Positions 67 through 25,200 of a stretch of 64,000 nt of DNA are shown piece after piece. Both the position numbers and the translations under genes were made by a program. The DNA lies in contig JAILWY010000004.1 in NCBI GenBank assembly GCA_022113835.1, forward strand, positions 4,839,501 to 4,903,500, given 5' to 3'. Source of the stretch: Atopsyche davidsoni. Its lineage: Eukaryota > Arthropoda > Insecta > Trichoptera > Hydrobiosidae. Within the stretch, counting starts at the first letter, position 1. Every line of letters begins with the position of its first letter. The notes beneath the pieces were generated by a model. The model had not been told where the DNA came from. It saw only the letters and a list, made by a program, of their open reading frames with translations, and searched no databases.

Positions 67-3000
67 AGTTTGGGTATCCTGGGCTCGGTCCCTGCGGCTT
101 GGCTCATCCTGACGCTGCTGGTCCTCCTCATCTACCTTCTAACGAGATGCTGCGATCGGAAACCTCGACCTGCCAAGAGCATATCTGCTCTCAAGGTAAT
201 GAGCAACTAAACTGGTTCTCTGAGATATTTAGCTAATGGTCAGCGGTGCTATTAAATATTCAATTTCAAAAACCTACCATAAATCAGTCATGACTTTTGA
301 CCTTAGACGAACGATTAACTTCTAATATTTCACACAAAACACCATATATGGTAGTGGAATTTTAAATATTAGATTATCATAGTAGGTACCATAATATTTG
401 TAAACTCTCAGAAAAACCATTACCTTTGTGTGTATATATATATATATATATAGATATAAATACAAAATTTTTATTCATAATACTAAAAAAAATATTTTAA
501 TTTTAGGTGACGCTTTGCATCGTAGCAGTCCTCTGCTGCTGTGCTATAGGCGTCGGACTCTACGGCAATGATGACCTTCACAATGCCCTTCTGCAGGCCT
601 TGGAGTCAGCCACCTCCATCAATAATATCGTTGGTTCTATCAGGAATCAGGTAACAATTAAAAATATCTTAATTTATTTATTTGAAATAAGACACTCAAA
701 AATTTAGGATTCACTCAGGCAATGAAGAATGTGTTTAATAGAATGTTTTGTTTTCTTGCAGACGAACTCCATTGAGCTGGCGCTCCTGCAGAAGGTGAAG
801 CCACAGCTGACGGAGCTGGAGGACATCTTTGAACAGCCGGTGCTCAACCAGACGGCGCTCGGCATGATCCTCAATACTCTCAGCAATGTGCGCAACAACA
901 CCAAGACCGCTCTCACCGCCGCTGCCGACATCAAGCGACCCCTTGCCGGCATCAACATGGGACCCTCTCTGGAGGTAAAGGAAAATAGTTTAATTAATTT
1001 ACTCCAATCAGCATTTTTGCATATACCTTAGTTATTCGTATTTCCATCCTTTTATTAAAATGTATTTTTGATTTGTACTAATTTAAATGTTTTAATTGCA
1101 GCGTTTCCGTCGCTGGGAGTGGTATCGTTGGGTGGGCGCCATGGGGGCATGGATCGCACTAGTGGTGGCTTGCGCTGTGCTGCTGGTTGGCGTGGCGCGA
1201 CACTCCCGCCGCGCTCTCATCGCCTTCAGCGTCTGTGCACTGGCTGCACTAGTGGCGTGCTGGCTGGCTGCAGGTGCCACTCTGGCCGTGGCAGTAGCTC
1301 TTGCTGATGCTTGCCAAGATCCTACTGCTGCTGTTGCCATGCGGACGCCTCCAGATCTACCTAAAGAGGTGACATTCAAATAAACCAGCTTATACCAAAG
1401 CAGATGTAAAAAGTATGATTTTTCACCTAACAAGCCCTCATTCTTGGATTTAATTCGAAATTAAAATCTTTGTAGGTTGTGCGCTACTACCTTGTCTGTG
1501 AAGTCTCTCGAGGCAATCCCTTCACGCAGCGCCTACGAGAGTCCCAGCGAGCCGTGACTGCCGTGCGCCAAGGCCTGTCTTCTCTGGGCCGCATCGCCAC
1601 CAATGTATTCGCAACTACCCCTAGTGAGTACTTTACATTAAAACATTACTGAATAAGGTATTTTTTTAAATTGTTGAATTGATAGATAAAAAGAACAAAT
1701 AACAAAAGTAATATTGCAGGATCAATTCCATCTTATTTTCTAAATCGCTTAAGACTTTTTTTAAATATAATACTTAACTACTACCTTAAACTTAATATGA
1801 TTAACTATTTTCTGTATAATGAGGAGAAAATTTAGTTTAACGTATCATGTGTCCTTAGGCTTGCAACCGACCCTGGGCTCACTGACAGCGGAGACCAATG
1901 CCGCAGAGCGCGTGCTAAACAGCCTGACTGCGCTGGTGGACTGCCGCTCTGTGCGTGCGCACTACATGGCCGCCACGCGCTCTCTGTGCGATGCAGGCCT
2001 GTTGGGCTTGGCTCTATTGCTACTGGCTGCCGCTCTTGCTGGCCTGCTCTTCACCATCCTCGTCTGGGTTGACAGCCACACCTGGATCTACATCAGGAAG
2101 AAGTATGTTGACTAGCAGTGAAAAATCCTATGAATATTTGTTTTGAAATATAAAAATATGATAGTATTACTGTTTTTGTGCTTATTGCATTGACCGTGAT
2201 TGCAGACGAGACTACGCCGGCGATGAGCATGCACCGTTCCTGCCAGGCAGCCAGGGCAGCGCGGCGGCCTCGGCGCCGCCGGCGCAGCGGCCGCGCGGCC
2301 AAGGGTCGTACTGCGCCCCCGCCCCCTCCCGCCCCCCGCCCCCCTCCTACGGCAGCGCGCTGGCCCTCCGCCACCTGCCCACCTCTCCGCATGAGCCGTC
2401 CAACGGCTACGCACACAGCGCTTCTCTGTCGTATGTCTTAGCTGCTACTTTAATGCTCTCTTGATATTTTGACAGTTGAATATTGATGCTTCCTTCTCCA
2501 TGCGACCACCTCAAAACTCACCGTGGATATAATGAAGACATACTCGCTTCGAATACGACTTATAAATCTAAAAGAATGTAATCAAATTTATGCAGTTTTA
2601 TATTGACTGTCTTTTACTTATCTAAATGGTAGGTTTATTAATTATGGCACTCAAACTTATGAACTTGTTTTCTTAGGTATTGAGCCGCATCATGTGTTGA
2701 TTAAACAATAATTAATCTTTATTAATTAATCAAAACATGATTCTGATTAATATCCACCATCCAATGGCCACCAAAACCTGCAAATCACTTATACTTGCAA
2801 GGCTCTTGATGCTGTTTAATTTTTCTGATTTAGATTTCATATACAGCTTCTCTAAATTCATCTCAAATCTTGTTCCTGTCAAAATCTCATTGGATAAAAG
2901 CTGAATATTCAAGGTCTTTTAATCATTCATCAAAGCGATTACTTCAGAATCAAATCAACACAGGCTCTCTAAACAAAGCATAATTTTTATGTTCTCAATA

Positions 3001-5248
3001 TCATCTGAATGGTGATGAGCTTTTCAACAATAACAGGAAACCACAATATCTATATTATATTGGCTTTTGAATACCCAAAAAACAGCGGCAGAATTTAAAA
3101 TTAATTTTTACAAGACAGGCTTTTCAAGTAGGAATAACTTACGAGTTAATGGTTTAATGTGCCCTGCAATGTATGTTGTTTATTGACCCTGCCTGAAAAG
3201 CCATTTATTTTCTACTTCCTTGGTCTATCTATACTCCAATTGAAGACATCAGAAATCAGTTTAATTTTCTTCAATAATCAAAACCAAAAATACAAGAAAA
3301 TTATAATAAAATAATTTCAATGAACTTCTTAGGAATGATATTGTGGCTCTCCGTCGTATTGGAATTCTTTCACATCTGTAAGATATATTAATAAAATTAC
3401 GATTATAATTAAAATTACCTAATAAAGGAAACCTAACTTTTTTTATGAGTAAAGTTTTAATGTCTGAATATTGACCTTGGATAATCATATTTTATAATTT
3501 TATATACATTATAAGCTAGTAAACTATATTATTTGACAATCATCTACTAGAAGTAAGTTGTATTGTTGTATTTTATCTGTAGGCAGAATTCTGTTTATTG
3601 CCATTCATACTCCGTTGATTGCCAAACTTCTCGAACAATGCTACAATAATTGACGCTGCTCAAGAATCCTGGTTTTATTGAATTGACTAAACCCTTCAAG
3701 TTTTTAAATAGACTTTTTTTAAAATTAAAGTCATCTCATAGTTTTTACCTCGTCAATGAAACCTTTTATATTATTAATGGTAATCAATCAACAATTCAAG
3801 CTATTTAAAAATCAAATCTAAGTAATCTATGATTGAATGACAATTATTTTACAGCTTTTAAATACAAAGAGTTGGAATCATAATAGGCTAGCTATGATAT
3901 TTATGAATCGTAGTCTACTAAGACTTGCCTGAAATTCGTGCTCGTCAAATAGTCGTCAAATACGTTACACGGTATACACAAAGCGTTTGTTCTCTGATTT
4001 TCTATCTGTATTTACAGTTTTACTAAATTTCAGATTGCTTATCAGTAAATGCTTTTACTACCTGTATTAACTGTTGATATCCTTGAACAGCCGTTCAGAA
4101 ATTGTTAGGTTTGAGCATAAGATTACTATAAAATATTATTTGGATGATAAATAGGTCAGAATATTCATTTACTATATTTTTGTATGAAGATTCTTCTGTG
4201 GAAGTGTCCAAACATCCGCCTGCCCACGGTATGTGATTTTCCCTCAATATATTTAATTGACTCTCTCGATGTGACCTCAGAAGGCTTAGATGGATGTCTC
4301 TGTAACATGTTTTAGCATTTGTTGTGCATGAGCCATACTATGTTACTTATTTCCTATCTTTTCTTAGCATTTTGGTTCCTCTGAATCACTATTTGTTCCG
4401 ATATATACTCTGTATGTTGCTATTTTCTAATTTCTCTAGAGATAGTGTTCATTGTTATGATTTCTTTTTACTTCATTGTGGTTTATGTTGCATACAAAAA
4501 GCTTGCAAGAATCATACCGCAATCCAAAATGTCCTCTGAATATCCCCAAAATTTAAACATAGATATTAATTAGCCTATTTAAATATATTCATACCAAAAA
4601 ATAATTCCCACATATTAAATTGACCCGTAAAGTAAAGGACATAATAGATCGATTATCAGCTTAACTAGTGGAATCCGTGATCGAGATTTTATACTGTTAC
4701 AAGTATGGGTCCCACACACTACTGCTTAATAGACGGCAGATTTTGCTCGAATTTGTCCCCTGTCATTTTTGGCAAGGTTTTGGAGTAAAAATGAAGTAAC
4801 CATATGCTCCGTTGAAATATTATTAGTAAACAAATTGACATACTTCAAAACTTATCACTGGAAAATCTTCAAGTGACTTTTTCTTCACGGAGACTGCAGT
4901 TTTCATTACAAAATAAAGTAAATAATATACTAATCTTTGTGGCAAAAATATTTAGTCAGATTTTATAAATCGGAGACGACACAGATCGGGAGGGTATTTG
5001 CAACTCGTGGCTTCTACGTTTACAGAAATGAGGTCAACGCCCCCGTGTACGGCACGGCCCGAGGACCTCCGGGAGGCGGACACGGGCACGGCGGGCGTGG
5101 CGGTCATCTCTCTTCAGCCCCTCCCGGCGCCTGCCACACCCTCGGCCGACTGCCCTCCCACGCGCCCGCCATGCTCGGACCCAACAATGGCAAGTACGCG
5201 ACTCTGAGCAAGCAGTGCAAGACGCTCGAGTCCTCCGACTTCTACTGA
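67..5248 (+). CDS. tty: Protein tweety (TTYH-family anion channel), 5'-truncated by the window edge
   Basis: Tweety proteins are multi-pass plasma-membrane proteins linked to large-conductance or volume-regulated anion currents. Eight exons read in consistent phase: 67-195, 507-650, 762-974, 1102-1368, 1476-1623, 1859-2102, 2206-2430 and 5026-5248, each bounded by AG and GT. They encode 530 residues up to a TGA at 5246-5248; the N-terminus lies left of the window. Membrane segments are visible in exon 1 (AAWLILTLLVLLIYLL), exon 2 (ahead of GVGLYGNDD, a recognisable TTYH stretch), exon 4 (two) and exon 6 (one). Exon 5 holds CEVSRGNPF, in the loop where some TTYHs carry RGD. The cytoplasmic tail is Gly/Pro/His-rich and ends KTLESSDFY. 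The frame stays open after the TGA (see next entry). Coding exons are GC-rich against AT-rich introns. Family identity is confident from remembered TTYH sequence; the exact channel activity is not shown. Confidence 0.93.
432..453. repeat. Short (TA)n microsatellite in tweety intron
   Basis: A run of about ten TA units lies in the intron between the first two visible tweety exons. It has no coding role. Confidence 0.85.
2431..5025 (+). other. Tweety intron 7 (2.6 kb, no gene seen)
   Basis: This is the longest visible tweety intron, between a GTATGT donor at 2431 and a TTTACAG acceptor at 5019-5025. It is AT-rich. The open frames inside it are short and resemble nothing I know, and I see no transposon ends. 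Confidence 0.75.
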
Positions 5249-6217
5249 GGGCGCGCGGGCGGCGCCGGCCCGCAGCCGCTCGACCCCCGCGGCCTGGCGC
5301 CCGTCCCCGGCTCCGGCTCCGGCTCCGGCCCCGGCCCCGGCCCCGGCTCCGGCCCCGCGCCCCTCTCTCTCGGGCCTCAAGACCCCCGCGACGTCACGCC
5401 TTCCCTGCCCGCCCACATCAACCGCTTCGATCCCAAGTACGCTTCCTTCGGTCCCAAACACCTCAAGGCCGCCTCGCAGATTGTGCGCCCCCTCGGCAGC
5501 ATCGGCGAGGGTCCTCCGCGCCTCGACTCTGCGCCTCCGCCTCTGTCCACCTTCGCGCGTCCGCCGCCTGACAAATACGCCACCATCCGCACCGGCGGCA
5601 AGTATGACAAGAGCCACAAGTACGCGCAGCAGGTGGAGCGCGAGCAGGAGAGTGCCGCCGCCGCCGGCCCGCCCCCCATGGCGCCCACCAGCATGGGCGC
5701 CAACATGGGCTCCAACATGGGCGCCGGCACGCTCGACCGCCGCCACGCCCAGCAGCGACGGGCGCCACCGCCCCGCGACAAGACCGCCAACGGCATCTCC
5801 ATCGTGCACCAGCCGCTGCCCGAGCCGCCCTCCTTGGCGCCGCAACCGCTCAGTGCCGCTCACTTTGCGCAGTACCGCTCTCCTGCGCCGCCCGCCCTGC
5901 CGTGCTGTCCGCAGGGGCAGCAGCAGCACCGCTCTCAGAGTCGCCCCGGCCGCACACCCGAGAAGTTCTTCTCCACCAGCAGCCAGAGCCAGCAGCAGCG
6001 CCCCAGCGTGGAGCAGCGGGGGGCGTCGCGCGCCTCTCACTCGCACACGCTGGACCGGCGCCACGCCAGCCAGCACCAGCAATCGGCGCAGGCGGGCCAG
6101 GGCCGAATCGGCAGTCAGACGCTGGACAGGCGCGGGCGCTCCGCTTCGCGTGCCCAGCCCGTCGCCATGGAGTCCGCCGAAGGGAACAAGGACCTGTATG
6201 CCGTCACCGAGTTGTAA
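5249..6217 (+). CDS. tty: In-frame C-terminal extension of tweety beyond the TGA (candidate stop readthrough)
   Basis: Immediately after the TGA at 5246-5248 the same frame runs 322 sense codons to TAA (6215-6217), which is followed at once by TGA. The extension begins with Gly/Ser/Pro-rich low complexity (about 5280-5360). It then becomes more ordinary: HINRFDPKYASFGPKHLKAA, a stretch with PDKYATIRTGGKYDKSHKYA, and three spaced TLDRR motifs (AGTLDRRHA, SHTLDRRHA, SQTLDRRGR). It ends DLYAVTEL, whose last four residues (VTEL) fit a class I PDZ ligand (S/T-x-hydrophobic). I found no in-frame splice that would skip the TGA. The TGA is followed by G, which is not the leakiest context. Because the region is GC-rich, other frames are also open, so length alone is weak evidence; the protein-like motifs and the double stop just before AT-rich DNA are stronger. 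It could also be a former coding tail now cut off by a nonsense mutation. Confidence 0.6.
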   Translation, partial: GRAGGAGPQPLDPRGLAPVPGSGSGSGPGPGPGSGPAPLSLGPQDPRDVTPSLPAHINRFDPKYASFGPKHLKAASQIVRPLGSIGEGPPRLDSAPPPLSTFARPPPDKYATIRTGGKYDKSHKYAQQVEREQESAAAAGPPPMAPTSMGANMGSNMGAGTLDRRHAQQRRAPPPRDKTANGISIVHQPLPEPPSLAPQPLSAAHFAQYRSPAPPALPCCPQGQQQHRSQSRPGRTPEKFFSTSSQSQQQRPSVEQRGASRASHSHTLDRRHASQHQQSAQAGQGRIGSQTLDRRGRSASRAQPVAMESAEGNKDLYAVTEL

Positions 6218-9200
6218 TGATAACTTCCAAGTGAGGCACATGTCGATGGTAGCCATTGCATTGTTTCACTTATTACAAAAAAGAACGATAAGAGCAATAA
6301 GTTTTTTTTTATTCAGTACGAATGCAATTTGGGAAAGGGCAAGAAGAGCCCCCGAAAGGGGGGAAGAAGATCGCATTGACCCGAACGGGCGAGGGGTGTG
6401 CGGCATGATGTCCTCGCTGCGACTTACGCTGACATTCCTCTAGGACTGAGGATGCGGCGATTAAAAAGAGAAGTGTTCATCAATCGACTAATTCCCCGAA
6501 GCTAATTGACTTTTTCAATGGGACGGTGCAACCCCGATAGTATTGAATATCGATTATGTATTTGTAAAATTTCTCAATAACCCCTCATTAGTGTAAGTTA
6601 AAAATTAAACTTAAACTCCGACAGTGAATCCGCGGATTGTGAACGACACCCCCGAGTGAGTGATCGTAACTCTGTATTTATGAAGACCCCATCTCGAACG
6701 TTCATCATGTATCCGATAATAATTATGTTAGATCAAAATTTGTAATGTAATCGAAATGACCAATGGGAACAATTGTTTTTGAATCCGCTCACTAGAGGTC
6801 ACGATGTCCCCTCCTTACCGCATTTACACTTTTTATACCGAAGCGCTTAAAGGATAAAACGGTAACTTTTAAACTTTAGCACGAAACAAAATGTACATAC
6901 ACCATTACTACTCTAGAGTCCCTTTGGTTTGTTGTACAGAGTGTCATTTGACTCGCTGGTAGATCGGCTTCCGTGTGACTGTTGGACATTCTGAGCAGCC
7001 TTTGTACATTCTTTCTACAAAACTCCAATTTGGCATTTCAAAGCTTACCGTAAGAATATTGTATTCGAGATATCTGTCGTAAAGTCTACTATAAGCTTAG
7101 ATAAAAAAAACAACGAAAAACATTTTGAAAAAAATATCTAGAGATGTCAGCTCACAATTTGAAATCTATAGTGTAATTTGAAGGTAAATACCACAAAAAT
7201 TAATGTAATTAAAGTACTGAAACCATAGCTATGAAAATATAAACAAATTAACACATAGAGGTAAATAAATAAATATACACGTCGAAGGTGCAACTTTGCC
7301 ATTTCAAAATATTTAAAGTGAACAGTTGAATGTTCATCTATTGGTAACGTCACATTCTCTAGTTAAGATACTATGTTTAAGATAAGTATGTGATGTGTGA
7401 TAAATCCACATTGAGGTGTAATTATTTATATAAATTTAGATATTCTCGGTGTAAGTTTTGGATGTAATTTATTCTACACTTTGTAAACAGTTTTACTAAT
7501 TGAGGCTGTCTCCAAACGCCATACTTGTAAAGTACAAACCGTCTCATTCCGCTCATCTTCAGTGTCGGCGTCTTGTCTTCGCAGTCAGCACAATACTAGG
7601 TCTAAGAGAAGGGTTCGTACGGACCAGCGAGAGCGCAACAGCCAGTTACTGTCTTGTATATAATATTATGAGTTAGCTGCCATTCTTGGACTGATTTTTA
7701 CTTTTAGAGCGGTAAAGCTCAAATATATTTTGTAAAATAATTCTCAGCAAAGGTTTTTGCCATTCGTGGCGACGATTGAATACTACGTAGAAAAATTTGC
7801 CCCCGAGCACAGTTCTCTTCACTCCGCGGTGAGTGGAAACGGTTGTTGCCAACCGGAGAAATAATATGAAGCATTGTCTTGCAATTCTCAAGTGATGTAG
7901 ATAGCTCCATACCTATTCGTAATTATATCAAAATTATTGTGTAGATTATTGTATACTGTAAACATTTTAAATAACAGATATTTGTAATGAAATTTTATAG
8001 GCAAATGCTCAAAAACATCACCCGTGTAAGTAGTTTAGATGAATTGGTCCGACCGACTGCCAGCGTATTTCGGTCGAGCGGAAGTATCAATTGATATTGA
8101 ATAAAAGTTTAACTTAATGTTGATATAAGGTGTTTGTTTCACATTTAAGAATTTATAATGCCATCTTATGTATTAGGTTTTTCATTAGGTAGGTAGTGCA
8201 GCAGGTTATTCTGCATTAAATAATTCAAAGTGTGAAGTTGTAGAGATATTTACATTTTTGTGTATTATTGTTTTTTATGAAATATTTTATTTGTGGATAC
8301 AATGCAGGGGAACTTCTTTGATTGCAGTCTGACGAGGTCTTCTACTGCCGACGTTTTAGTGATATATTCAAAACTGAAATAAAAACAACATTTTACTAAA
8401 CAAAATTGTAAATAAAGATCCATGTCGAATGTATATTTTAAAATTGACTTGAGTGAATTTCAGAAAAATCGATCAACCCTGACATAACTTTAAAAACTCA
8501 ATTTCTTAAATTGTACATCATGGATTAATTTTTTGCACAACTAAGTTTTGAAGACTGTCCCGTGTCTATCGTTCAGTTTTCTATGAACGACGAAATCAAT
8601 GGAGTTCTTCTGTTCAGATTGTACGAACTAGTCAATCATTTTGCTCTTTTGCAGTTGAATATCTAAGTATGGAGATGTAAGGTTAACTGTATATTGGAGT
8701 AATCAGTAAGAGGTGCATATTTTATCAGTTTGAGCAAATATCCGTAACACGTTATCGCATACACTTGTTGATTTAAAGTAATGATAAATTAGTAGCAGGA
8801 TTCGGATACTAATGGATATATTTTATAAGAGCTATTATATTTATTGTCGCTCCGGCGTACACTCCGGGGTCTAATCAACATGTGTCAAATAAATTTTTCT
8901 GTCGAAATCTCGAATCTATTTCAGATTTACAATTTTTAATGTACGTATTTCTACTATATCAAATTATTTCATCGTCTCGAACAAAATTTGATCAATAAAT
9001 AATATTACTATGGTTAGGCGTATTTAGGAGATAATTTTTTAATAAAAATACACTTAAATTACAAGACTTAACGTTTAGTAGCTTGAGAGGTCCGTAGGGC
9101 GAGATTCGAGATTTGCGATTTCTAAAGTAAACGGAGCGATGCACAACATTTCTGTGAATCGTCTTAAATATAGTTTTCGTTTTTGGAAAGTTTATTTTTT

Positions 9201-10277: not shown

Positions 10278-13200
10278 TCATAAGAACGGCCCCCAGCCGA
10301 TGTACATCTGACAGAGATTTGTGATGCTCGTGGCTTCAAGAATCAGGTTGTTGACTTGACCTTCGGGCGAGAGTGGCAGAGAAAACTGCTTACCGTCTAT
10401 TCTAACCTAAAAAAAACATATTACAATAAATGATGATTTCAAACATTGACACTTCCGCCTTTGATTTAACGTGTCTGACTAACAAGGTGTTATAAATGTG
10501 AAAAAAAGTATAAAGTTACACTGCCTCAAGTCTTAGCGGTAAGCGCGCTTGCCTGCTTAATCTTTTGGTCCAAGTACTGAAGATGTACCAAATGATTTTC
10601 TCCGATGCTTGCTTACCCACATTCTTTCTAGCAGCCTCCAACTCTTACCGAGTACTATGATTATACACTCTTCCTTGAGCTCTTGTTAAACATAAAACCT
10701 TACCACTCCTTGCAGCCGCTGCTCTATCTGCAAGAGGTGCTCCTTGGCTGACTGGTTAGTTCTTTCTGCAGACGTCTTGTCCTGTCCCTGCTTGCGCTGC
10801 CATACCACCAGCGGATCGTACACAAAAGGACGGATTACCGACATCAGTGTCGGTGTTTGCGATCGCAGCACGCGGATCGTCACCTCACAGCATTTTCTGG
10901 AATACATTCGCAAATATATATAAATTTCAACAGAAAAGTACCACAATTTATATGATACGTTATGTAAGCACTACCATTGCGTTATTTATGCTGTATATAT
11001 ATTTTAAGTAAGCTTTGGAGCAGCTTTATGTATGTTACAATAACTTTGTAAGTATATAAAAGCCATAACAGTAATATTTATGCACCTGTACATCCCTTCG
11101 TGCTTGAGAGGCCCCATGGCGTTGTCCATGTTGTGCGTGAGTCGGAAGGGAACTCTCTCCGGCCAGTCCAGGCACTCGCCCTTGTTGAAGAGGCAGTTGA
11201 AGTCGACGTGCACCGTGTCTCCATTGGTGCAGTCAAACAGGATGTTCTCTCCGTGCCGATCCCCTAGGCCTGGTAAAAAGATGAAACTTCTAGATGAATT
11301 CAAAAAAGCGGGGAGCAGTCTTTTAAAAAAAAATGGCATTTGTAAATAAATATCAATAAATATTGTATGACACGTGTTTAGCAGTACAGTACATAAAAGC
11401 AATAAAGCGTTGCATGTCCTAAAATATATTCTAAGCAGCATAAAAATACATAAATTCACGCCAGAATGGTACAATAATTTAGAATAAAATATAATTAATG
11501 ACTTGTAATTTTAACAGTTTGAAATACAAGAAGAAAAATAAGCCACCTATTAAATTATGATAACAATAAAACAGCAGAAAAATATATTTCAGCAATCATC
11601 TCACATAAATAAAGTTTGATCGCTGTGAGACGGTGCTGATGCCATATCAAAGGCAATTCTTCTGGGATTTATATACATAATAATTATAAAGCAGGCAACT
11701 CTAGATTAGAAAGAAAGACAGTTTAGCCAGACATGATGAACACATAAGAGTTTAAAAGTTCACAATAATCATACCCAAAATGTACCCGACCATGGACATG
11801 ACAGCAGTGGTGCGGATGTAGGCAGACCTAGCCTGGTACCTAAACATAAAATTTTCTAAATAAATGATGTTTCATAACATTTGTATCTTAAGTCAGACTT
11901 TTCGAGCAAATTTCAAGGAAAAAAGATGTTTGAAGACGTTATGTTAATCCCTTATTCCAAAAGGAAGCATCAAAAGCAACACTTGCAGCCGTTTCCATCA
12001 TAAGGAGCAGACGAGTTAATATGCAAACATTACAAGTTTTTAACTAGAGACTTCCATGGTAACTGAGCTTGTCTCTCTTTCTCTCAAAGAAAATTTTTAA
12101 TTTAATTTAACTTCACGATATTCGTGAGGTTTCATAATTTTAGATGAATTTGCAAATTATCTTACCAAGCATGGGGATCAGGAAAGGTGTATCGGAACCA
12201 GTGCCCGAATATGGGTGGATGCTTTGGCAATAAATGTTCCATGAAAATCTTTTTTTTCTTTGCCAAACTATCTTCATTTGAACACATCAGCGCTTTTAGT
12301 TCTCTTGGAGAAGTATACAAATCTGGAATTACAGAATTTAACATTTTAAAGGAAATGTAGTTTTTCAGTCATTAGTCAGTGTATGTTAATAATTCATTTT
12401 AATTCACTGTAAATATTTCGTATACATTTGAGTCGTTTTTGCTCTGGGTCTGTCTAACAACAATAATAAGTTGAATTCATCTTGAATTAAATTTTTTTGT
12501 TTGAAACTGTTGCTTCAAAACTAGGGTAGTTATGAAATACTTAAAAACTATAATTAACTAGCAGCCTGTGTTCTTATGTTGTTTTTATAAATACACTCAC
12601 TCTTTTCCTTGTAAAGCTGCATCAATATAGGCCTGAAGCCCAACAGGTGCGGCACCCACTCGATGAGACCACACTCCTCATTGAGAGGCAGGACGCTGTA
12701 GGTGCGGATGTGCAGCCGGCGAGCACGAGCCTCCGGGTTGCAGCGCAGGTAGCGGTTGACGACACCGTTAAACTCCATCAAGCGGAAGTCTTTACGAAGA
12801 TCGTCCTTCGGTTTCAACATTATGATGTACTTTTTACCATCAGACCCTAGAAAATACACAATATTAGTCAACATCGGTCTAGCAATATAAACAGTAATAG
12901 TAAATAGCAATATTAAAAATAGCGAGAGCATTAATAATGCTTTCAGCAGCTAAGTGTGCTCGAGTTCAAACCATATGCAGGCAATTCAAAGTGATTACTA
13001 ACAGGGTTGGCGTGACCACCAAGCACCCAATTAAACATAAAATTGTTTTGCTCAACCTTGTTTGCTTTTTAACTTTTGTGCTGTACTTCTTGATTGGTGT
13101 ATTGTAAATTTCCTTATATGATTTTTTTAGATCTGGCATTTTTCATAATAAAATTCTATGTGCATTGCCCAGGCAAACTTAATTTTTTAAGTTACCTGTT

Positions 13201-16200
13201 ATATATCCAAATATAAAAATACAATTACATATCCAGTTGAGAGTTACCTTTGAGAGTTACTTTTCTTGGTTTTTGCAATGAAGGAAAAATAGTAACTTCC
13301 TCCTCGATTCCTGTAATGTACACCAGAGACGGGAAAGGACTATAATGTGGATCTCTTTCCTAAAAACAAAATAATAAAAAACACTTGTTTCACACTATGT
13401 GTGATCACGTCCCAAGTTTGAATAAATATCGTAAGTGTAAAATGAAGTACAAAGTGCTTACGTACCTTTTGAATGGAGTCTGTTGGCAGCATTATCTTTA
13501 CAAAGTGTTCGTGAGGGATCATGATTTGGCTAAATTTCTCTCCAGCAAGGAGGAGCGGCAGGCTTTTCACCAGAGTCGAAACGCGAGTAGTCTGAAATAT
13601 CAACAGAATATATCATAAAACTTATACTCATGTGCACATGGATTTATAGACTAACAAAATTTTTCTAAAGCCATTCGGTTTTTGTATGTTCTTTAATTAA
13701 AGTATTTACAACTAATAAAAAAAAATTATACCTGCACTTTATCAGGTACAGGCTTGTTGCAGAGTTCAATAAGTTTATCCGCTAGTTTATTGAAATCTAG
13801 GGTGAATTTGAGAAGGCCGGGTTCCTTCAGCCTCGGATCGCTGAAGATTTCTTGGCATCTTTTGATCCTCTGCGGGTAACTTGACTTGATCACGCATATC
13901 ATCATCCATAGCGAGTGCTGTGGGTATGCAATAATAAGCTTCACAATTATGGATTTCAACTGTGCGTAAACCTGAAATCAGAAAAATAACATACAGTAAA
14001 ACTATTTATATATATACATATTGTGGTGATTCCACCCCCTGCCTAAGCTAAAAATTCTAATTATAATAACCTTAATTAAATTAGACGCGAACGTTATAAA
14101 ATTCCTAGTAATAATTTTCCTGAAAAATTTTTAAAACAAAAATTAACTTAAAACTAGTGGTTCAGAATTGTTTGATTGAGGTAAATCTTTTTTCGCGATA
14201 TTGGCCACCTTTGAGAACTCCAGCTCTCATTTCCATCCCCAAGTACAGGTATCTTAAGTGCTTCGTATTGTGTACAACACGTACAAGCATCCAAGACAGT
14301 GACTGCCAACCCAACGCTCCCTAATTTCTTCGACAATCTAATTCCGCGTACTCTTTATGACAAAAGGCGAGTCCTATGAGTCCAACATTAACAGGATAAC
14401 GAAAACGAATCTACTCTGAATTCAACCAATCAAATCTGAACGAGAGCCAAAGAAACGAAATCCGTCAATACAAAAACATTTTCTGCTGCAATTTTGTTAG
14501 GACTTGCAATCCGTCTCGAACTGAAGAGAACTCCTTGTGTTTAATTTTAAAGTTGCGGGCCGCCAAAGGCAGGACACCGGATGATCTGGAACGTTGGACG
14601 ACGGTGTCGCCGAGTAATTTATATGTTCTGGAACAAGGGAAATTTGCCCTTTCTGCGTAGTTAGAGATATGACGAGATTGTTTCTGTATTGTAGACTCAC
14701 TTCCTCAACTCTCAATGCAACTAATTTACTCTCTACGGTTAGTACAAAATTTTGGTACGGTCGACTCGGACGCTCACGTTTTCTCCGAAGATCAATTATT
14801 GTTCCACAACGGCCGTTAGAACCTTATACACCCTAATCCGAACTGGAGGCTTTCACTCCGATTGTCGCCTGATATCAGGTTCACTCAGTGATTGTGAGTT
14901 TCAGATCAACGTTACAAGATGACGGTCGTTCCAGTAGAACGCGATCAAGCGGCTTAATTCGAATTCGGCGGAACCCGCGAATGTCCAAATTGTGATAATG
15001 TTATGTGTCAGGAGATTATTTGAGCGGCTACGCTCTAATACATACAGGGTACTAAATTTAATACTAAACACAACATAATAATAGAGGTAATGAAATTCTT
15101 ATAGCTAGTTCAAATTACTAAACACGGTAGAAAATTCCCCTTCGGCAATCCTAGAATCGAAGACTTATTAACTAGTTTCTTAAAATTATTAAATATAAAA
15201 ATACCATTGATAATACACGCTCCCTAACTTGGCCAATTTAAAATAATCCGAACGCTCTCTTTTGTTCAACGCGCGAACAGACGCTAGCGTTAATGTCGCT
15301 AAGTACCGCCTCAATACTCAAAATAAAATACGCTTAAATATCTAACATATAAAATATTCCTTAATACCAATAGACGCCCGATAATAATCCGAAACCCAAG
15401 TCCGCCGCAACCGTATAGCGTGAGTATAAAATCCTTTAAACGCTTCCGTACGCAGGTCCCCTCCCCCCGGCTAGAAGAAACGTAAGCCACTCGGTTACAC
15501 GATCGCGTATTTCTCCAGGTAAAATACAGAGCATATAAAATAATATAAGGGTAATTGAATGATCTCAGGTGGTCCGTGAATAGCGATCGAAAGCCCTAAT
15601 GAGATTTGCTGTAAGAAAAGTACACCCAAACATTTAAAATTAACATAAACCCAAATTAAATATACCATAAAAATACACCATACGATCTAATTTAGACGCC
15701 TATCATATGACCGTAGAGTTAAATAATAATAACGTAAATTATAAATCTACCCTGGATTAAGACGCCGCGGACGAACTCAATACAATTAAAATTAACCTAT
15801 AACCTTACTTAACAATACTACATTAATTGAATATCGAAGCTGGAAGAAATAACACATAAAATCACGCACGTCGGCCCCTTCGCGTTCATAAAAATCAGCG
15901 TATAAAATAAATTGAAACTCATCCGTCTGCTTCGATGTTCCAGCTCCCCGATCGGCAGCATCCCTTGACCACTGAATCTACATTTAATTAAAGATTCGAA
16001 ATAATATCTAATTATTTGGTATTTAAAAGAGACGCGTTCATCCGGGACGTGACTGCTCGCCTTTGTCCTCTGCACCAGAAGGACCCGTCTGCTCCGGCGA
16101 TGACGATTGAATGCCTCATTTTTGCGTGTCCTTGCGCCCTCGAGCCGCTCTCACTACCTGCGGCCCCTACATTCCAGAAATAATGTCAACCATGTGTTGC

Positions 16201-19200
16201 ACACTTGAGATGCCCTCCGTCCTACGAAAGCGACCCAAGCCGTATCTTCAGCCCGCGAAGTTTGAAATAGCGTCCCGCAAGATAAATTTGAATAATTACA
16301 TAGTTCATTATTTGCGACGCTTCGAATTCACGAATCGTCACAATATGTAGACACTCAGGAAGAACTTACCTCTTTGACAGGGTGACAGATTCTGGAGACG
16401 ATCTGTGAGAAGGCCGTCAGGAACAGGTAGAGAGGCAATCTCTCACTGAAGGTTTCGATTATGGTGCACATCTGCTGTAGACAACCCATGGCGGGGGCTT
16501 TGGACTCTGGAAACTGAGCATCAAAATCTAACCTGCAATATAAAAATTTGATTTCGAATTTACAAATGTAATTAATTAGTACAATAGTCGATAAAATATC
16601 CACAATATCTAGTGTGCCGGATGAGTCTATTCTGAGAGCTGTCAATACTCCAATTATTTAGTCTCTATGTCATGGCACTGTAACGAAGGTCAGATAAAGT
16701 CAGAAAATTTACCAGATAGACAGCATCCGAGGCATGCTCTGGTAGATGTGCTTGTGTCCGTGTTGCAGCGCTCGGCCGTAGCAGTCGAGAGCTCGCACCT
16801 GTGCCATGCCGCCCGGGGCCCCAAACTTCTCTTTGGCCGCCATCGCCAAGTACACGCGCTCATAGTAACTAGCCAAGCAAACCTAAACAGATCAATCATA
16901 ATTTCATATTAACTATCTGAATATTGTGAATATTAAAAATACTAAAATAATAATTACCAAACTCTTCTCCCAACCTCTGTACACCTCCACGGCTTCTTTG
17001 TAATGTCCTATATTTACGTCCATGTCTACATTAGTTGTTTCATCGTTATAAATAGCCTTTAAAAGTTTCCCCTTAGCACACAGTTTTCTGAAAAAAGCAA
17101 GATATTTTATGAATATTGCAAATATATTTTATCAAGAATGAAGAATACCCTTATTTGATATAGATGAAAATGTATACAATAAAACAAGAATATATTATAT
17201 AGCTTAACGGCTTTTATTTGACAAATCAAGCTTTTATCCTAAAAGCTCCCGTTCCTCTTTATGGACAGCAACTATTTATTCCACAAAATGAGCTTTTATC
17301 TTAAAAGCTCTTGTTTTTCTATATTGACTGCAGCTATTCAATCAACAAATAAACCTGTATTTGCTGCAACTATTTCTCCTCGTCGGATAACAAATCAAAT
17401 CTATTAATGATTATTTTTAAATATATCAGCATTCAACAATCTGGATTTGATAAATATAAGTTACAAAATTTAAAGTTACAAATTTAAATAAACTAAATGG
17501 TTAATTTGTCTTGTAAAAGTCTACATACTTATCAGCATCAGACAGTTCAGTGACTTTGGGAAAGTGCTTAAGAAGACCCCGCTGCAGGGTCTGGAATGCG
17601 GAGTCCTGGTCTCCCTTCATCCAGTACACCTTGGCCTTCTCCAAAAACGCTTCTTTCGGGCAGTGCTTTTCTCCATTGAGGATATAAATCAAAGCCTGCA
17701 GAAAACAGTTTGTTAACTTGGTAAAGAAATATTTAAATGCGATAATATTAAATGTATAATATGAATTGGTATAATATTAAATGAATAATCTATTATACAA
17801 CCTATCACTATTTAAACTTCCCATGCAGTTCAAAATTATAACAATTTCAATAAATCAATAAAAGATGAACCTGATGATAAATAGACGCTTTGCGAGCAAA
17901 CTTGGCACTCTGAAGCCAAATTTTTCCAATATGGGCATCGAGTAAGGAAACTGTACTGGGATGACTGTTGTGAACAAGTTCCTGTAAGGTAAAATGTAAC
18001 TTGAAATAATAAGTCAGCCATCGTAAAACTAAAGATTAATGTAGTTAGTGATAAAAACAAAATATTTTTATCCCAGCAAAAGCAAAAAAAAGTATTGTTA
18101 ATATTAAATGAATAAAAAAATTAGTTCACCTTAAACTGCTGTAATAATATTCTCCGCACTCGCAACACCGGTTCTACTGTTCTTGCTGATGACTGCAGTA
18201 AGCGCAGTCTCAAGTCCCAATGCTCCATCAAGCTGTCCAATGTCTCCGAGCACTCTTCACTACTGTCTGTCAGCCCTTGAATTCTGAAATTGGCCATCAG
18301 ATGAAATTAAGTAAATATGCCGGTACTTTCAACACCATCATAAATAGTAATACATACTTCTTGACAGCATTCTCAACATGCTGTAGCTCAGTCAGCATAT
18401 GGAGGCCGATGACATGCTCGTAAGAATGCTGATAAGCCCGACGACCTTCGGCTGTACCCCCAGCGCCACCCACTAGATGACGCAGTAGGGAGCTACGAGC
18501 ATCTTCCATTACCTCCTCAAGAGGGGGGCCTCCGCCTCCGCGCAACTGCACCAGGCAACGCCCCATGCTCACCCCCCAACTGTCATCATCACTCAACTGG
18601 TATGAAGATATAGAATATTTGTAATTCATTAAATACAAATAAATTAAACATAAGCATAGCTAATATATTGCAGTGGCATGCAACAAGCTGTGGAATTTAG
18701 GAACTGGTGCATGGAGAGAGGTGGATATGGAAAGCTGCTGAAAATATATAACAAATTATAAACAATTTTTATAATAGCCTGACATTGCTTGCTCATAATT
18801 ACATTTTCCAATTGCAGTAGTTTCTCAAGTTGTGGAAACAGAGCGAGTCTCCAGAAGGGCTCGGCGGCCAGGCCGCACACCTCATCTGACCCCTGCAGCA
18901 GGTTCAAGGCCATATACGGCTGGTCCAACTCTAAGTACACCTTTATCATACCCTGTTGAAAGAAAATGCTATTGTAAGCTAGATCAGGGTATTTAGACAC
19001 CAAATGGTACAGTCATGATAGAAACAGATCAAAATCAGATCCACCAAGAGAACAAGACACGAGTGGAATATGAAATCTCTTTGTTTGTTAAAACACATGT
19101 GAGTCAGAAACTAATTTTGTATTAAAAATAAATTTGCAGGTTATATATAGCAATAATTATTAACAGATTTTGATTCATTTTCCAATGTTTTGGCTCCGAT

Positions 19201-22200
19201 ACTGAAATAACATGAATTCAATTCAACTAGATATGATTTTGCAGTAAGATGAAGCATCATTTGTATCTGAAATTTTTAAGATGTATAAAAAATTGTATTT
19301 TTCATGATAGAGCTAAACTTGTAACCCAGAAAACAGATATTGTATAGAAAACAAAAAAAAACTCAAAAACCTGTTTTTACATAGTAATTTACAAAACCTA
19401 CTACATTTGTTTGAGCCAAGTTATGTATAAACCTTGAGGCGTTCGCCATCGATATTTCCATCCTGCGCACACTTCTCATAGCAGATGGCTGCGTCCTGCA
19501 GCTGGCCCGTCACTTCGTGAGCGAGAAGCAACTCCGATATGTCAGGCTCAGCTTGCTTCACTTTCATGATTCCTGCAAACAAAATAATCAAAGATAATTT
19601 CGGCAATACTTCCAATATATCAACAACTACTGCAAACTGATTGGCACATGAGACTCGTTAATAATACTAGACAGAGCAACCTTGAAAAGCTGATGTCAAC
19701 TAAAAAAAAGATGTGGACAGCAACTTAAGTTGAGAGCTAGATACAAAAGGAGTAAACGATTCACGCATACCTGTGAAACTCGAGGAGTCTTTGTATAATC
19801 TTAGAAGAATGAACACAAAATTAAACATAGTGAAGCTTTAAAACACATATTCGTCAGCTGTGTCAGTCAAAAATGAAAATAAAATATATCCAAACCTGCC
19901 ACAGCGTCTGGTTCATCGAGGTCAGCGTAGATTCTGGCCAAGAAGCCGAGCTGCTCTTGCAAGTGGTGAGGCTGCTGCAGCATGAACCCTTCCAGGTACT
20001 GTAGTGCACGCTCATACTCACCGCACAGAAAGTTTCCCCGTGAGATGGTAAGCTTGCAAAACCCGTTTAAGAATGAACTTAATTTTCTAAAATGAAAAAC
20101 GTACATAATTTTAAAATAATCAAAATAATTTTAGGTACGACAGAATCTGTCTAATTTTAATTAATTCCTATTTTTTTTTAATTTAGTTTCATAATTTTTT
20201 AATGTACTTACAGATAGTTACTGCATTGAGAATCCTTCAGGGAGTGAGACCATTCCAGTAGCCAACGATTGAGGAAATCCAACAAGATATAAATCATCTT
20301 GGAACATTTTACCTGAACAAAGAATTGCAACAATAATTCAGTCCTGTTTATAAATTAATAGATCTTATGAATCGAGATTAACAATTTAGTGGAATCATAA
20401 AGGAGTCCACGAAGGTACCTTCATGTCTTCTTCCGGTAGTTCTTCGGCTGATGCTTCACGGATTCCTTGAGCTTCTTTGGCTTCAAAAGCTTTGAATTCA
20501 GCGGCAAGCTGTGCTGTTGTTTCAGGATCTGCCTGCAGTTCATTTTCCTGGTCTGCTTCAACTTCTTTGAGTAGATTAGATACATTCCAAACTGTTTTCA
20601 AATAAAAAAATCACTTTATATCGACAAAAGTTACGCTTTAGGTCCAATATTTCTAAATATTTTAGCTTTAGATATAGGTGATTTTGAACTTGCTCACTCT
20701 TTGATATAGCTTCGCTGATACGAGTAAGTCTCGAAGATGGAGTGTCACCACTGCAGGAAGGAATGCTGTCCATAGGTTCGGGTGGAGGATGGGTGATCTT
20801 GATGTTCTGGACTGAAGACTTTCCATTTATCTTCTGAATCGATTCATCATCAATACCTGAAATATGATAATAAACCATGAGAACTATTGTTGTTATTACA
20901 AGGCAATTATTCTTTGTTTATTTAATTTATACGGAAGACTTTTTTCAATTAAAATCATTATATTTTAATGAGAAAGAACTTATATAAACATGTTTCAAAT
21001 ATAAACAGTAAATAATGAATTAATTAGGTCTTTTATCATTTGTGCAAGTTAAAAATAAAATATAAGCAGATAAAAATAATTATATCTAACCAACAACAGC
21101 CATGATCTCCTTTGTAATGACTTCTACGTCAGCATCAGGAGATGTGACAGCATGCAGGACTATGTACGGGAGGAAGAGCACCAGGGTTCGAACGTCTCCC
21201 TTCAGGCAGGGCAGTGCGGTCTTCAAGACATCCAGAATGGGGCCCGATGTTAGAGAAATGAGCTTGCTTGACCAACTTCAATCAAAGACATACATAAACT
21301 TCTAATAGTCTCAATGATATTTTATCATGTTTCTTTATTACATTCATTCTCTGAGGAGAGGTACTCGCGAAATTTTAAGATATCAAAGGTATTGCAAGTG
21401 TTTCGTATTTCAGCATTTTCTTTGCAAGGAATTCATCACATAGTTTATTTTTCTCTCTTTAAACCTAGAGATAACTCTTTCCTGATTCTAGCCCAGGACT
21501 CTACAGTTGGCTAAGAAGAATGCTTATCACTGGACCACGATAAGATCTAACGGAAGCTAATTTCGAAATACCTTTTTCAATCTTTCACCGATGTCAATCT
21601 GAGATCAATCTAATTTCTTGTAATACTTCATCTCAAAAAAAATGTAAAACATTTTTTATACCTGTAAGCCCATTCTCCAAACGTCAAAACCTGGTTTGAA
21701 CCATAAATTGGATACGACACTTCTTGAGGGACTGCAGAAACCAGAGTGTATCTGAAATCAAAGAAAGTACGAGGCTTATTTATTTACCAATTATATTTCT
21801 CAGAAGTTTATTCATTGGGCATTATTTATGTAATCTAGCGAGTTTCCAGTTTTTTTCTTGTCTGAAAAATATTTCTATCTGCAAAATATACTGTCGTATT
21901 GAAATAAGTCTTCACTTATCAAATAACCTCTTTTCAGATTATACTTAGTTATGGCTTTTCAAAAATAGTAAATATAACATAAAAATTATAAGTATATGTT
22001 TAGAAAAGATATATTAGAATATTTTATATCATGATAATGCAAATGAATGCTTATTGCATAAATATGATGCACGTTGTGTATTTTACCTTGAAGATAATAA
22101 TGGCTGCATTATTTGATGCATATTTTCAGGAAAGCTTTCCCATAAACCACTATTTTCACCATCTGGGGAGATGTTAAAAGTCCTCAAAATTTCTTGAATC

Positions 22201-25200
22201 GCCAGGGCATAACAGTTCATGCTCTAAAAATAAAAATCTCGCCAATAAATAATTAATAAAGCATAATATAAGTAAATAACGAAATAAACATACTTTGGTG
22301 TTTTTTTCAAATTGGAGAGCTCTCGTGAGTTCTTTTAGGGCCTCCTTGGCAAACCCCAGGTCGGATATGCTGAATGTGAACTTGTCATTGTGACTCTGCT
22401 TGATGCTACGCGGAAGAATCGATGGCTGGAGTGCTCCCATTTCACCCAAGCAGCGCCCACTCCAGGAGCTGAGAATGACATCCTTATCTCGGGATCCTAA
22501 AAGAAATTATCGAATAATCTATAAAGCATTTAGAAGAAGCATGAAGCTGCTCTTTCTTATCTATTCATCCTTCAAATGGGTACAAAAAAAATATATTATC
22601 TCTGCTCATATATAATAGATATTCTATATTAAATTGAGTATTGCATAAAGTCCAAATCAATAAATAAATACCTGCTATTAAATAATCTGTCAGTATTACA
22701 ATGTAAGGATTTATGTCCCGGCTTCCAAAAATCGCTTCGTGAACATCCGCCTGGTGATGATGTACCAATTCGGTCAAAAATCTTAATGTATACACTCTAA
22801 TTTCTAGCATATCTTGATTCAAATATTTTAAATACCATTTCACTTGGTCAATGAAACCTTTAGGCTTTGCTCTCCTCACATGTTTCAGTACAACACTTTT
22901 GACTTTTGGATTTATATCAATGTCTTCTAAGAAAAACAGATCAGGAATGAAATCACAGAGCAAGTTTTCATTACTAAGTACTAAAAACTTGAACATTTCG
23001 TTGATCTGCGGCGTGTTGTGAGGCAGAATGGGCATCAATGCCACAAAGATTGCGGGTAAAAGAGGCCCAAGAGCCACGACATCTACGTTGTGTATGAATG
23101 CACTCCATGCTAGAGTATTCAAACCGTGATACTCTTTCATTAATGATAATGACGTGTTAAGTGTTGCCAGCAATTTGTACCGCAAGGGGGTTATATGTTT
23201 TGGGCCCATCAGGTTCAAAATATCAGGCAGACTTCGCAGAGCCATTTTTTTGACTGCCAACGCTACTTTTACGTTTGCAAGTTTACTATTTATGTACACA
23301 AGAACACCCAGGAATCTAGGTTGAAGGAATTCGGCGAGTTGAGGTATGGATAGACTCGTTTCAAAATTAATTAGGGGATATTCTGGATCGTAACTGGCAA
23401 GCATTCTACACGCAGCTAACACTTTATCAGCATGAATGCAGTACTGAAGTAGAATTTCCGTTAAAATAATTCGGAAATGTTTCTTGATAAGATTAATCAA
23501 GGATGTCTTTGTTACTGTTTCTATGTAAGCAAAGCATTTGTCGGATATTTCGGGTGTTTCGTATAAAAGGATATGCGTGTATATATATGGAAATCTTTTC
23601 TCGATGAGCTCTTCTGGTTCACACGGGAATTCTGCAGCTATCTCCACCATGATAGCGTGTAAGTTGCTATTAGTCACAATGGTGGGTATAAGGTACGGTA
23701 GAATATAATGTTTCTCATAACATAAGAAGTCTCTGCAGCTTTCAAACTCAAAGGCACTGATGACCTGTTAAAAAAATACAATTGTGATATTCAATTCAAG
23801 TATGTTGAATGTTTCATGGTTAGTTCTCTTGACAAGACTGTGTATTGAAAGATATTAAATATTTTTTCTCCAAAATTCAGTTTTCATGTACTTATGTAAA
23901 GCTATGGTTTTATATAATTTTAACACATTACATTTTTAGAACTATCAATACACAGTCCTTTTAAGTGTTATACTATAGATATTTGTACCTGAGCTGTGGA
24001 GGTTACAAAGTCAAACTCAATTAAATAATTGAAAGCCACAAGCTCCATCATGATTCGGCAGAAGATGTTCTTGTACTCGTGATATATCACAGTGGGAGTG
24101 CTGCCGTGGGCCACGCAGATGCTGCTCACAATGTCAGAAGCCATGGGTCCGAAGGGACAGTTTGGATACATCATGAAGTAGATCAGCATCTTGATACTCG
24201 GCAATAAAACAATCTCTGAATTTGTGACACCGAATATCTCAATGGAATCCAAGCACATTTGCTGTTTATTAAAATCATCCGTTTCTAAGCTTTGCTTTGT
24301 AGTGGTGAATAAAAATTGAATAATAGCATTCATAATATCAGCTTTTTCTGATTCTTTTAAGTCACTGTTGGCCTGAAATCAAACAAGTATATTTTTGCGT
24401 TACTTAAAATGTTATTATAAATCAAAATTTCTTATAGCTAGTTGCAACGATATCAACTGCATGCCCCATACGCAGCGGTATTTCAAACGACTTATAAATT
24501 CAAAATTAAACTAATATGCATCAATTGAAGAATTTTAACACTTTGAATTTTTATTTATAACAAAAAGAATTGTATATTAATACAAAAACTATTTTGTACA
24601 AACTACTGATGACACCTGCGAAGGTAACAGACCGGTCATCTTAAACAGTCGGTGTTTCGTCTAAAATTATTAGAAACTTATTACTGGATCACTATGTGAT
24701 CACCTCTTTGCCTGAAATGTTTCACCTGCCAGTTAAAATTGTTTTTTTAGTATAGTCTATATATTATAGAAAGTATTATTAAATCAAGTGAGTTCAGTAT
24801 AAAAAATGCTAGTTGTGTTTAAAACTTATACAAAGCGATAGCAAAGAGATGAATATTTCACGGCTTACAGTTAATTATAGAATAAAAATATATAAGTTAA
24901 TGTCCTAAAACAATACACACCTGCATACTTATAATAAATTCTCTTAATATTTTATTGAAGTATTCTAAGGAGTCTCCATCGAATAAATAGTTGATAGTCG
25001 GCAATACAATAATATTATGTTGAGAAAATGTCACAATTAATTTAGAGACGTAGAGATACTCTATATTTTCATAGCGACTGATATCCAAGAACTTTTCCAA
25101 AACTGGCCTCAGTCTCTCAGATGAAGTAGTCTTTGTAAGTCGACTTCTGTTAGGGATAACCACAGTCTCCGGATCGACCAGCTCTTCTTCTATTTCCCAC

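What the first reader, a model, noticed from the sequence alone, without database searches (positions are those of the whole stretch)
5246..6217. Tweety stop codon followed by a 322-codon in-frame extension ending in a PDZ-type C-terminus
Seen: the tweety frame continues without interruption after TGA to a TAA-TGA double stop, encoding three spaced TLDRR motifs and a VTEL C-terminus that fits a class I PDZ ligand. No in-frame splice avoids the TGA. Known: insects use TGA readthrough unusually often. Inference: readthrough would switch a channel between a form without and a form with a scaffold-binding tail. Caution: the region is GC-rich and several frames are open.
Basis: partly seen in the sequence, partly recalled or inferred. 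Interest (0 to 1): 0.75.

Follow-up and report, generated by a model that had tools for sequence, protein, structure and literature searches.

The report
Conserved Tweety tail behind stop codon
In this probably caddisfly genome the membrane-protein gene tweety has, directly behind its normal stop codon, a hidden in-frame tail whose last six residues are identical in tailed Tweety proteins of flies, mosquitoes, wasps, bees, ants and a beetle, so the tail is very likely real; whether the cell reaches it by reading through the stop or by cutting the stop out of the message is not settled.

Summary
In detail: tweety's TGA (5246-5248) is followed in frame by 322 codons with three TLDRR motifs, ending LYAVTEL and a triple stop. 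The frame-0 codon signature is reached by 0 of 2000 dinucleotide shuffles. Of 149 tweety proteins retrieved (top-120 lists of two searches), 120 end DFY/DYY like the window's short form and 26 carry a tail; all 26 (11 Diptera, 12 Hymenoptera, 3 records of one beetle) end YAVTEL, a class I PDZ-ligand pattern. A 2021 review says the extension seems to occur only in D. melanogaster and its function is unknown. The proposed mechanism is only partly supported: 25 of the 26 tails are gene models lacking the stop-bearing segment, and in all four brachyceran flies among them the tail follows GPNN, as if spliced out at a donor inside the G-K-Y codons. The window's TGA lacks the favoured following C and shows no excess RNA structure. 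I favour readthrough here (0.5) over splicing (0.38). Caddisfly RNA-seq or ribosome profiling would decide.

The parts
67..195 (+). tweety coding exon (partial gene; an N-terminal exon lies upstream of the window)
   Evidence: splice sites and frame; PF04906 exon hits, incl. one upstream of the window at G000:C4:4839185-4839289 (below the family cut-off)
507..650 (+). tweety coding exon
762..974 (+). tweety coding exon
1102..1368 (+). tweety coding exon (Pfam PF04906)
   Evidence: Pfam E 8.3e-22
1476..1623 (+). tweety coding exon
1859..2102 (+). tweety coding exon (Pfam PF04906)
   Evidence: Pfam E 7.6e-22
2206..2430 (+). tweety coding exon; its donor scores lowest of the gene's seven and is in phase with several AG sites inside the tail
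5026..5248 (+). last tweety exon up to the TGA (5246-5248); encodes the conserved short C-terminus GKYATLSKQCKTLESSDFY
   Evidence: 120 of 149 retrieved proteins end DFY or DYY
5189..5196 (+). candidate GC splice donor ATG|GCAAGTAC (intron would begin at 5190), at the codon where fly long forms leave the short form
5249..6214 (+). 322-codon in-frame tail ending DLYAVTEL (class I PDZ-ligand pattern)
   Evidence: identical last six residues in 26 of 26 tail-bearing relatives
5250..5250 (+). first base after an in-phase AG formed by the stop itself (TACTGAG|G; 60-nt intron 5190-5249; GAG acceptor)
5382..5382 (+). first base after the best-scoring in-phase AG for donor 5189 (192-nt intron 5190-5381); no adenosine 10-98 nt upstream
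5729..5743 (+). TLDRR motif 1
   Evidence: tail residue 161
5795..5830 (+). ISIVHQPLPEPP, matching the best conserved block of dipteran tails (PSILNCPLPEIP)
   Evidence: 5 of 3000 shuffles score as high, one of 12 blocks tested
6047..6061 (+). TLDRR motif 2
   Evidence: tail residue 267
6119..6133 (+). TLDRR motif 3
   Evidence: tail residue 291
6215..6223 (+). second stop: TAA TGA TAA in frame

Best explanation
The stretch 5249-6214 is a genuine alternative C-terminal tail of Tweety, kept at least since the common ancestor of flies, wasps, beetles and (probably) caddisflies, whose point is its last residues YAVTEL, a class I PDZ ligand. The gene makes a short form ending DFY and a tailed form that can dock on a PDZ scaffold. 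In this genome the tail lies in the same exon and frame as the TGA, and I think the commonest route to it is ribosomal readthrough of that TGA. Shown: the frame, its coding signature, the conserved terminus in relatives and the conserved short terminus. Inferred: that readthrough is the route, that YAVTEL binds a PDZ domain, and that the choice is regulated.
For: Tail real: 26 of 26 tail-bearing relatives end YAVTEL; frame-0 codon excess reached by 0 of 2000 shuffles; GC at codon position 3 of 0.88 against 0.44 and 0.38 in the two stretches measured behind the tail. Readthrough: the tail follows the TGA in frame without break; the frame-0 signature is already present in the first 44 codons (4 of 2000 shuffles; a GGCTCC/GGCCCC repeat there may inflate it), which the 192-nt splice would remove; TGA is the favoured stop of insect readthrough genes, and the 8-mer CAGCAGCA, enriched in or just before their second ORFs (PMC5100048, section 7 part 1 read), has three matches in the tail (5918, 5921, 5990, the first two overlapping); the AG sites in phase with the homologous donor are poor.
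Against: The base after the stop is G, not the C favoured in fly and mosquito readthrough genes. RNA around or behind the stop is no more stable than shuffles (three stretches, z +2.0, +1.7, +1.0). In four of 11 dipteran and three of 12 hymenopteran tails the protein departs from the short form right at the G of G-K/Q-Y, a splice-donor position, and the window keeps G|GCAAGT there. The 60-nt splice (5190-5249) would also leave the codon signature intact. No DNA of any relative, no RNA and no peptide data were at hand. The tail body is poorly conserved: whole-profile searches with fly, wasp or beetle tails do not stand out from shuffles (112, 3982 and 776 of 5000 shuffles reach the whole tail's score for wasp, fly and beetle).
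Confidence: 0.5

Rival explanations
1. The tail is reached by alternative splicing that removes the stop-bearing segment, as modelled in flies. Either the GC donor 5189 is used with an acceptor at 5250 or 5382, or a weaker GT donor (5193, or exon 7 at 2430) with an acceptor inside the tail. The TGA form is then the intron-retained short form.
For: Long forms of Eupeodes, Drosophila willistoni, Eurosta and Bactrocera continue directly after GPNN, and braconid long forms (P0124, P0126, P0131) after DQPG, the same codon. In the 121 of 149 proteins where the motif could be read, the residues are only GKY (59) or GQY (62), as expected if GGT-NAG-TAY must stay a donor, though protein function could explain it too. 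The window's donor scores 6.86 outside the GT/GC pair, above the gene's seven known donors (-0.97 to 3.92).
Against: GC donors are rare (recalled). Acceptor 5382 has no adenosine 10-98 nt upstream, while the gene's 8 known acceptors have 9-22 in the 10-50 nt upstream. Acceptor 5250 is a GAG site scoring -2.17, below all 8 known ones. The frame-0 codon signature covers most of the supposed 192-nt intron behind the TGA (with the repeat caveat).
Confidence: 0.38
2. In this species the tail is no longer made: it is a recently orphaned 3' UTR that still looks coding because it was coding in an ancestor that spliced it in.
For: No expression data; the donor reads GC; poor in-phase acceptors.
Against: 322 codons without a stop, strong codon signature and an intact YAVTEL with triple stop.
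Confidence: 0.07
3. The TGA is recoded in another way: A-to-I editing to TGG, selenocysteine, or an assembly error.
For: One unnamed ant-like protein (P0111, source lgn, apparently from a transcript contig) reads tryptophan at the stop position, which could be editing or merely a gene caller reading TGA as W.
Against: The stop position is shared with 120 of 149 proteins ending DFY/DYY, so an assembly error is unlikely. No SECIS or other Rfam match in 4900-9100 at E up to 1. The A of TGA follows G, a poor editing context (recalled).
Confidence: 0.05

Closest known systems
Long isoform of Drosophila and other dipteran Tweety (tty)
   Same: Tweety core plus a long hydrophilic tail; D. willistoni, Bactrocera, Eurosta and Eupeodes tails end NYAVTEL like the window's LYAVTEL; the review PMC8273234 (section 5 read) gives D. 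melanogaster Tty 520 extra C-terminal residues
   Different: In those four records the tail is joined at GPNN, without the stop-bearing segment; in the window it is contiguous with the TGA in one open frame. Tail bodies share little that can be shown beyond the end and a PLPxxP block. The D. melanogaster sequence itself was not seen here
Conserved stop-codon readthrough genes of flies and mosquitoes (PMC5100048)
   Same: TGA; in-frame extension more variable than the first ORF; CAGCAGCA 8-mer (section 7 part 1); P-, S-, R- and Q-rich composition like fly readthrough extensions (PMC4999894, passages)
   Different: Following base G not C, no excess RNA structure, and a rival splice donor; tty/tweety is not named in the held main texts of PMC5100048, PMC3840789, PMC13170385 or PMC4999894; supplements not seen
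Vertebrate TTYH1-3
   Same: Tweety family (recalled; the window's exons hit PF04906)
   Different: No YAVTEL tail known to me (recalled; not tested here)

Membership tests
Tweety (PF04906) | Tweety domain | tested here: met
   exons 1102-1368 and 1861-2100 hit PF04906 at E 8.3e-22 and 7.6e-22; best protein relative Arctopsyche grandis tweety, 76%
Insect stop-codon readthrough genes | in-frame second ORF with coding signature | tested here: met
   0 of 2000 shuffles; single genome only
Insect stop-codon readthrough genes | frame-specific conservation across relatives' DNA (PhyloCSF) | not testable with these tools
   no insect DNA but this genome; one viral-contig scan gave no relative
Insect stop-codon readthrough genes | no alternative splice explains the downstream signature | tested here: inconclusive
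   in-frame donor/acceptor pairs exist but are weak
Insect stop-codon readthrough genes | leaky context TGA-C or a 3' RNA structure (frequent, not obligatory, hence not defining) | tested here: not met
   TGA present, but next base G; fold z +2.0, +1.7, +1.0, i.e. no excess
Insect stop-codon readthrough genes | ribosome footprints or peptides past the stop | not testable with these tools
   no such data held
Tweety long form by alternative splicing | donor in the G-K/Q-Y codons with in-phase acceptor | tested here: inconclusive
   GC donor 5189 present; acceptors 5250, 5382, 6183 poor
Class I PDZ ligand | S/T at -2 and hydrophobic residue at the C-terminus (motif recalled) | tested here: met
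   VTEL-COOH; same in 26 of 26 tails
Class I PDZ ligand | binding to a PDZ domain | not testable with these tools
   none
Selenoprotein | SECIS element downstream | tested here: not met
   no Rfam match at E up to 1 in 4900-9100

The most novel reading that the evidence does not exclude
One and the same protein switch, Tweety with or without an ancient YAVTEL scaffold-binding tail, is thrown by splicing in flies and by stop-codon readthrough in caddisflies (and perhaps in bees and ants, where gene models bridge the stop with what would be 36-nt introns): a case in which translational recoding took over from, or backs up, an alternative intron at the same place.
Probability: 0.33. Interest if true: 0.75.

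Novelty: new variant of a known kind. Interest (0 to 1): 0.55.

Why it matters
Tweety is a conserved membrane protein whose role as a channel is in dispute. An invariant PDZ-ligand terminus shared by flies, mosquitoes, wasps, bees, ants, a beetle and this probable caddisfly, hidden behind the usual stop and missing from most of the entries retrieved here (120 of 149 end at the stop), names a testable partner class (PDZ scaffolds) for a tail whose function a 2021 review calls unknown. If the route differs between orders, the gene is a natural experiment on how splicing and readthrough replace each other.

Tried and rejected
Searching residues 512-853 of the joined protein (short C-terminus plus tail) against 5.8 billion proteins gave nothing at E <= 0.001 among 7981 scored candidates: the body is too variable and of low complexity. 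Whole-profile HMMs of wasp, fly and beetle tails did not single out the window tail from 5000 shuffles (112, 3982 and 776 shuffles reach it; without the C-terminal 12 residues 945, 1459 and 2860). Of 12 conserved blocks tested singly only PSILNCPLPEIP stood out (5 of 3000; about 0.02 after counting 12 tests); HNSHGPAHLATF was next (102 of 3000) and the other ten had 400 or more of 3000. Stop-proximal RNA structure: no excess. Selenocysteine: no SECIS. Viral contigs as a stray source of insect DNA: 27 pattern matches, none a relative. Hymenopteran long models as proof of splicing: rejected, because 11 near-identical tails have five different junctions, one of which (TLESS^REPP, five records) would be a 36-nt intron when measured on P0111. 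P0111 as proof of readthrough: rejected, because an intron-retained short-form mRNA would look the same. A likeness between the sequence after 5382 and the start of fly tails (DPRDVTPSL, DPARSQPSL) and a shared ACxD at the start of fly and beetle tails were seen by eye and not tested.
Full report
What is there. The window lies in an unnamed 370.7 Mb genome, G000:C4:4839501-4903500. Its first 6.2 kb hold most of a tweety gene; the nearest protein is tweety of the caddisfly Arctopsyche grandis (76% identity), so the host is probably a caddisfly (inference). Exons at 67-195, 507-650, 762-974, 1102-1368, 1476-1623, 1859-2102, 2206-2430 and 5026 onward join in frame; two exons tested match Pfam Tweety, and a further, N-terminal exon lies upstream of the window. 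A family search of the genome gave 6 matches, all at this locus. The short form ends NNGKYATLSKQCKTLESSDFY at TGA 5246-5248. The tail itself is found once in the genome and matches no Pfam family.

The tail. The frame stays open for 322 codons (5249-6214) and ends DLYAVTEL followed by TAA TGA TAA. The region is GC-rich and other frames are open too, so openness alone says little. Composition and codon choice say more: GC at codon positions 1-3 is .717/.609/.879 in the tail and .49/.44/.44 in the 300 nt behind it. Codon preference learnt from the gene's exons up to the TGA is 0.385 in frame 0 against -0.04 and -0.02 in the other forward frames and at most 0.11 on the other strand; the last coding stretch has 0.402 (it is part of the training set) and 600 nt of UTR -0.58. 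The frame-0 excess is reached by 0 of 2000 dinucleotide shuffles for the tail, 4 of 2000 for its first 44 codons (a GGCTCC/GGCCCC repeat there may inflate this) and 505 of 2000 for 300 nt of UTR. In sliding stretches of 102 nt frame 0 leads in all but the two that start at 5810 (behind) and 5861 (level).

Conservation. Two protein searches with tweety queries (256 and 274 hits at E <= 0.001, only the best 120 listed each time) gave 149 different proteins. Of these, 120 end D[FY]Y, 26 end YAVTEL and 3 do neither (P0103, P0116, P0128). The 26 comprise 11 Diptera (five Anopheles, Diamesa, Sitodiplosis, Eupeodes, Drosophila willistoni, Eurosta, Bactrocera), 12 Hymenoptera (ants, bees, wasps; P0111 is unnamed and placed by sequence) and 3 records of one beetle, Dendroctonus ponderosae. 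They are not independent within orders, but six identical residues at the very end in three orders and in the window are not chance. Between the stop and that end the tails diverge: profiles do not stand out from shuffles, and only the fly block PSILNCPLPEIP finds a counterpart (ISIVHQPLPEPP, 5 of 3000 shuffles, one of 12 blocks tested). This is what a disordered linker with a functional tip looks like (inference). VTEL fits the class I PDZ pattern (recalled motif); binding is untested. No lepidopteran or hemimetabolan tail was among the 26; nothing can be said of those groups because the lists were capped.

How the tail is reached elsewhere. In 25 of the 26 tailed proteins the stop-bearing segment is missing. 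In Eupeodes, D. willistoni, Eurosta and Bactrocera the protein runs GPNN straight into the tail, so the segment that reads GKYATLSKQCKTLEANDFY-stop in other flies is gone. A phase-1 donor inside the glycine codon (G|GTAAGTAY, reading G-K-Y) would do this; that is inferred from protein, since their DNA is not held. In Chelonus (two isoforms) and Cotesia the junction is DQPG^REPP, the same codon. In the 121 of 149 proteins where the motif can be read, the residues are only GKY (59) or GQY (62), as expected if NAG-TAY must remain a donor. The seven other dipteran tails leave at or near this point or further upstream, variously. Of the other Hymenoptera, eight have four other junctions in near-identical sequence (TLESS^ in five records, TLES^, YATL^, EHR^ in one each), and TLESS^REPP would be a 36-nt intron measured on P0111. 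Such scatter looks like gene predictors bridging a stop (inference), so splicing is better supported in flies than in ants and bees. P0111, from a 5.25-kb contig, reads DFY-W-GHAPAGPGREPP: TGA read as W, or TGG, in line with the tail; an intron-retained short-form mRNA would give the same.

How it is reached here. Scoring donors before and AG sites after the TGA: the donor homologous to the fly one is present as ATG|GCAAGTAC, a GC donor whose flanks score 6.86 against -0.97 to 3.92 for the gene's seven known donors. Three AG sites are in phase with it. Site 5250 (TACTGAG|G, 60-nt intron) is a GAG site scoring -2.17, below all 8 known acceptors (-0.49 to 7.44). Site 5382 (CTCTCTCTCGGGCCTCAAG|A, 192-nt intron) scores 0.10, within that range, but has no adenosine 10-98 nt upstream, against 9-22 in the 10-50 nt upstream of the known acceptors. 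Site 6183 scores -5.68. A weak GT donor at 5193 and the exon-7 donor 2430 are in phase with sites 5500, 5692, 5980 and 5983, of which 5983 (2.26), 5500 (-0.05) and 5980 (-0.43) score within the known range; two weak GC donors (5085, 5094) are in phase with these too, and four more weak GC donors (5051, 5090, 5207, 5216) with 5382. The scoring matrices were typed from general knowledge, not trained on this genome.

Readthrough features. In fly and mosquito readthrough genes TGA and a following C are favoured, conserved RNA structures are enriched (9% against under 1%), and CAGCAGCA is enriched (23% against 8%) in the second ORF or the 250 nt before the stop (PMC5100048, section 7 part 1 read). 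The window has TGA and three CAGCAGCA matches, two overlapping, but G follows and folds are no stronger than shuffles. Those authors excluded candidates that splicing was likely to explain (passage), which may be why tty is not named in their main text. It is not named in the held main texts of PMC3840789, PMC13170385 or PMC4999894 either (of these I saw passages of PMC3840789 and PMC4999894, and the abstract and section 22 of PMC13170385); supplementary lists could not be read.

Literature. No held paper has tweety with readthrough and stop codon, and none has caddisfly with stop codon readthrough. Papers with tweety and PDZ number 35; the 15 listed concern other subjects, judged by title and start of abstract only, and 20 were not seen. 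Searches with tty/CG3638 and readthrough and with tweety, isoform and splicing terms (12 of 1,059 listed) showed nothing on this tail in their listings beyond the review. PMC8273234 section 5 (read) says the extended C-terminus seems to occur only in D. melanogaster Tty, comparing it with amphioxus and tunicate, and that its function is not known. The present result extends it to Diptera at large, Hymenoptera, Coleoptera and, through the window, probably Trichoptera.

Verdict. The mechanism is open between readthrough (0.50) and splicing at a changed ancestral donor (0.38), with small shares for an orphaned tail and other recoding. These odds are judgement, not computed.

Noticed in passing
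G000 whole genome: Only one Tweety gene is detected by PF04906 (six exon matches, all at this locus), although D. melanogaster has a second one (CG3638, named in PMC8273234). A loss, or a limit of the exon-wise search.
   Followed up: no
11004-27171 (-): ORFs that look by eye like an ATR-type kinase gene; UME domain at 22568-23767 (Pfam E 5e-16), no Pfam hit at 25585-27171.
   Followed up: partly
28205-31977 (-): LTR-retrotransposon-like ORFs (protease, reverse transcriptase, integrase and CCHC gag by eye); only looked at.
   Followed up: no
32736-34941 (-): Two C2H2 zinc-finger ORFs; Pfam run on the second only.
   Followed up: partly
36615-38504 (-), 41115-43001 (-), 44184-46001 (+): Three long, mutually similar ORFs resembling insect ionotropic receptors; Lig_chan on the first (E 9.5e-9), only a below-cut-off SBP_bac_3 hit on the third, the second not scanned.
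   Followed up: partly
47802-48464 (-): Glycosyltransferase family 10 (fucosyltransferase) C-terminus, E 3.3e-31.
   Followed up: partly
55671-56156 (-): Fragment resembling a mariner-type transposase by eye.
   Followed up: no
60787-61257 (+): BTB_2 domain exon, E 5.8e-13.
   Followed up: partly
P0077, P0094, P0096, P0100, P0140 (Hymenoptera): Public gene models bridge the tweety stop with what would be a 36-nt intron measured on P0111, likely an annotation artefact that hides a stop codon; other genes may be treated the same way.
   Followed up: no
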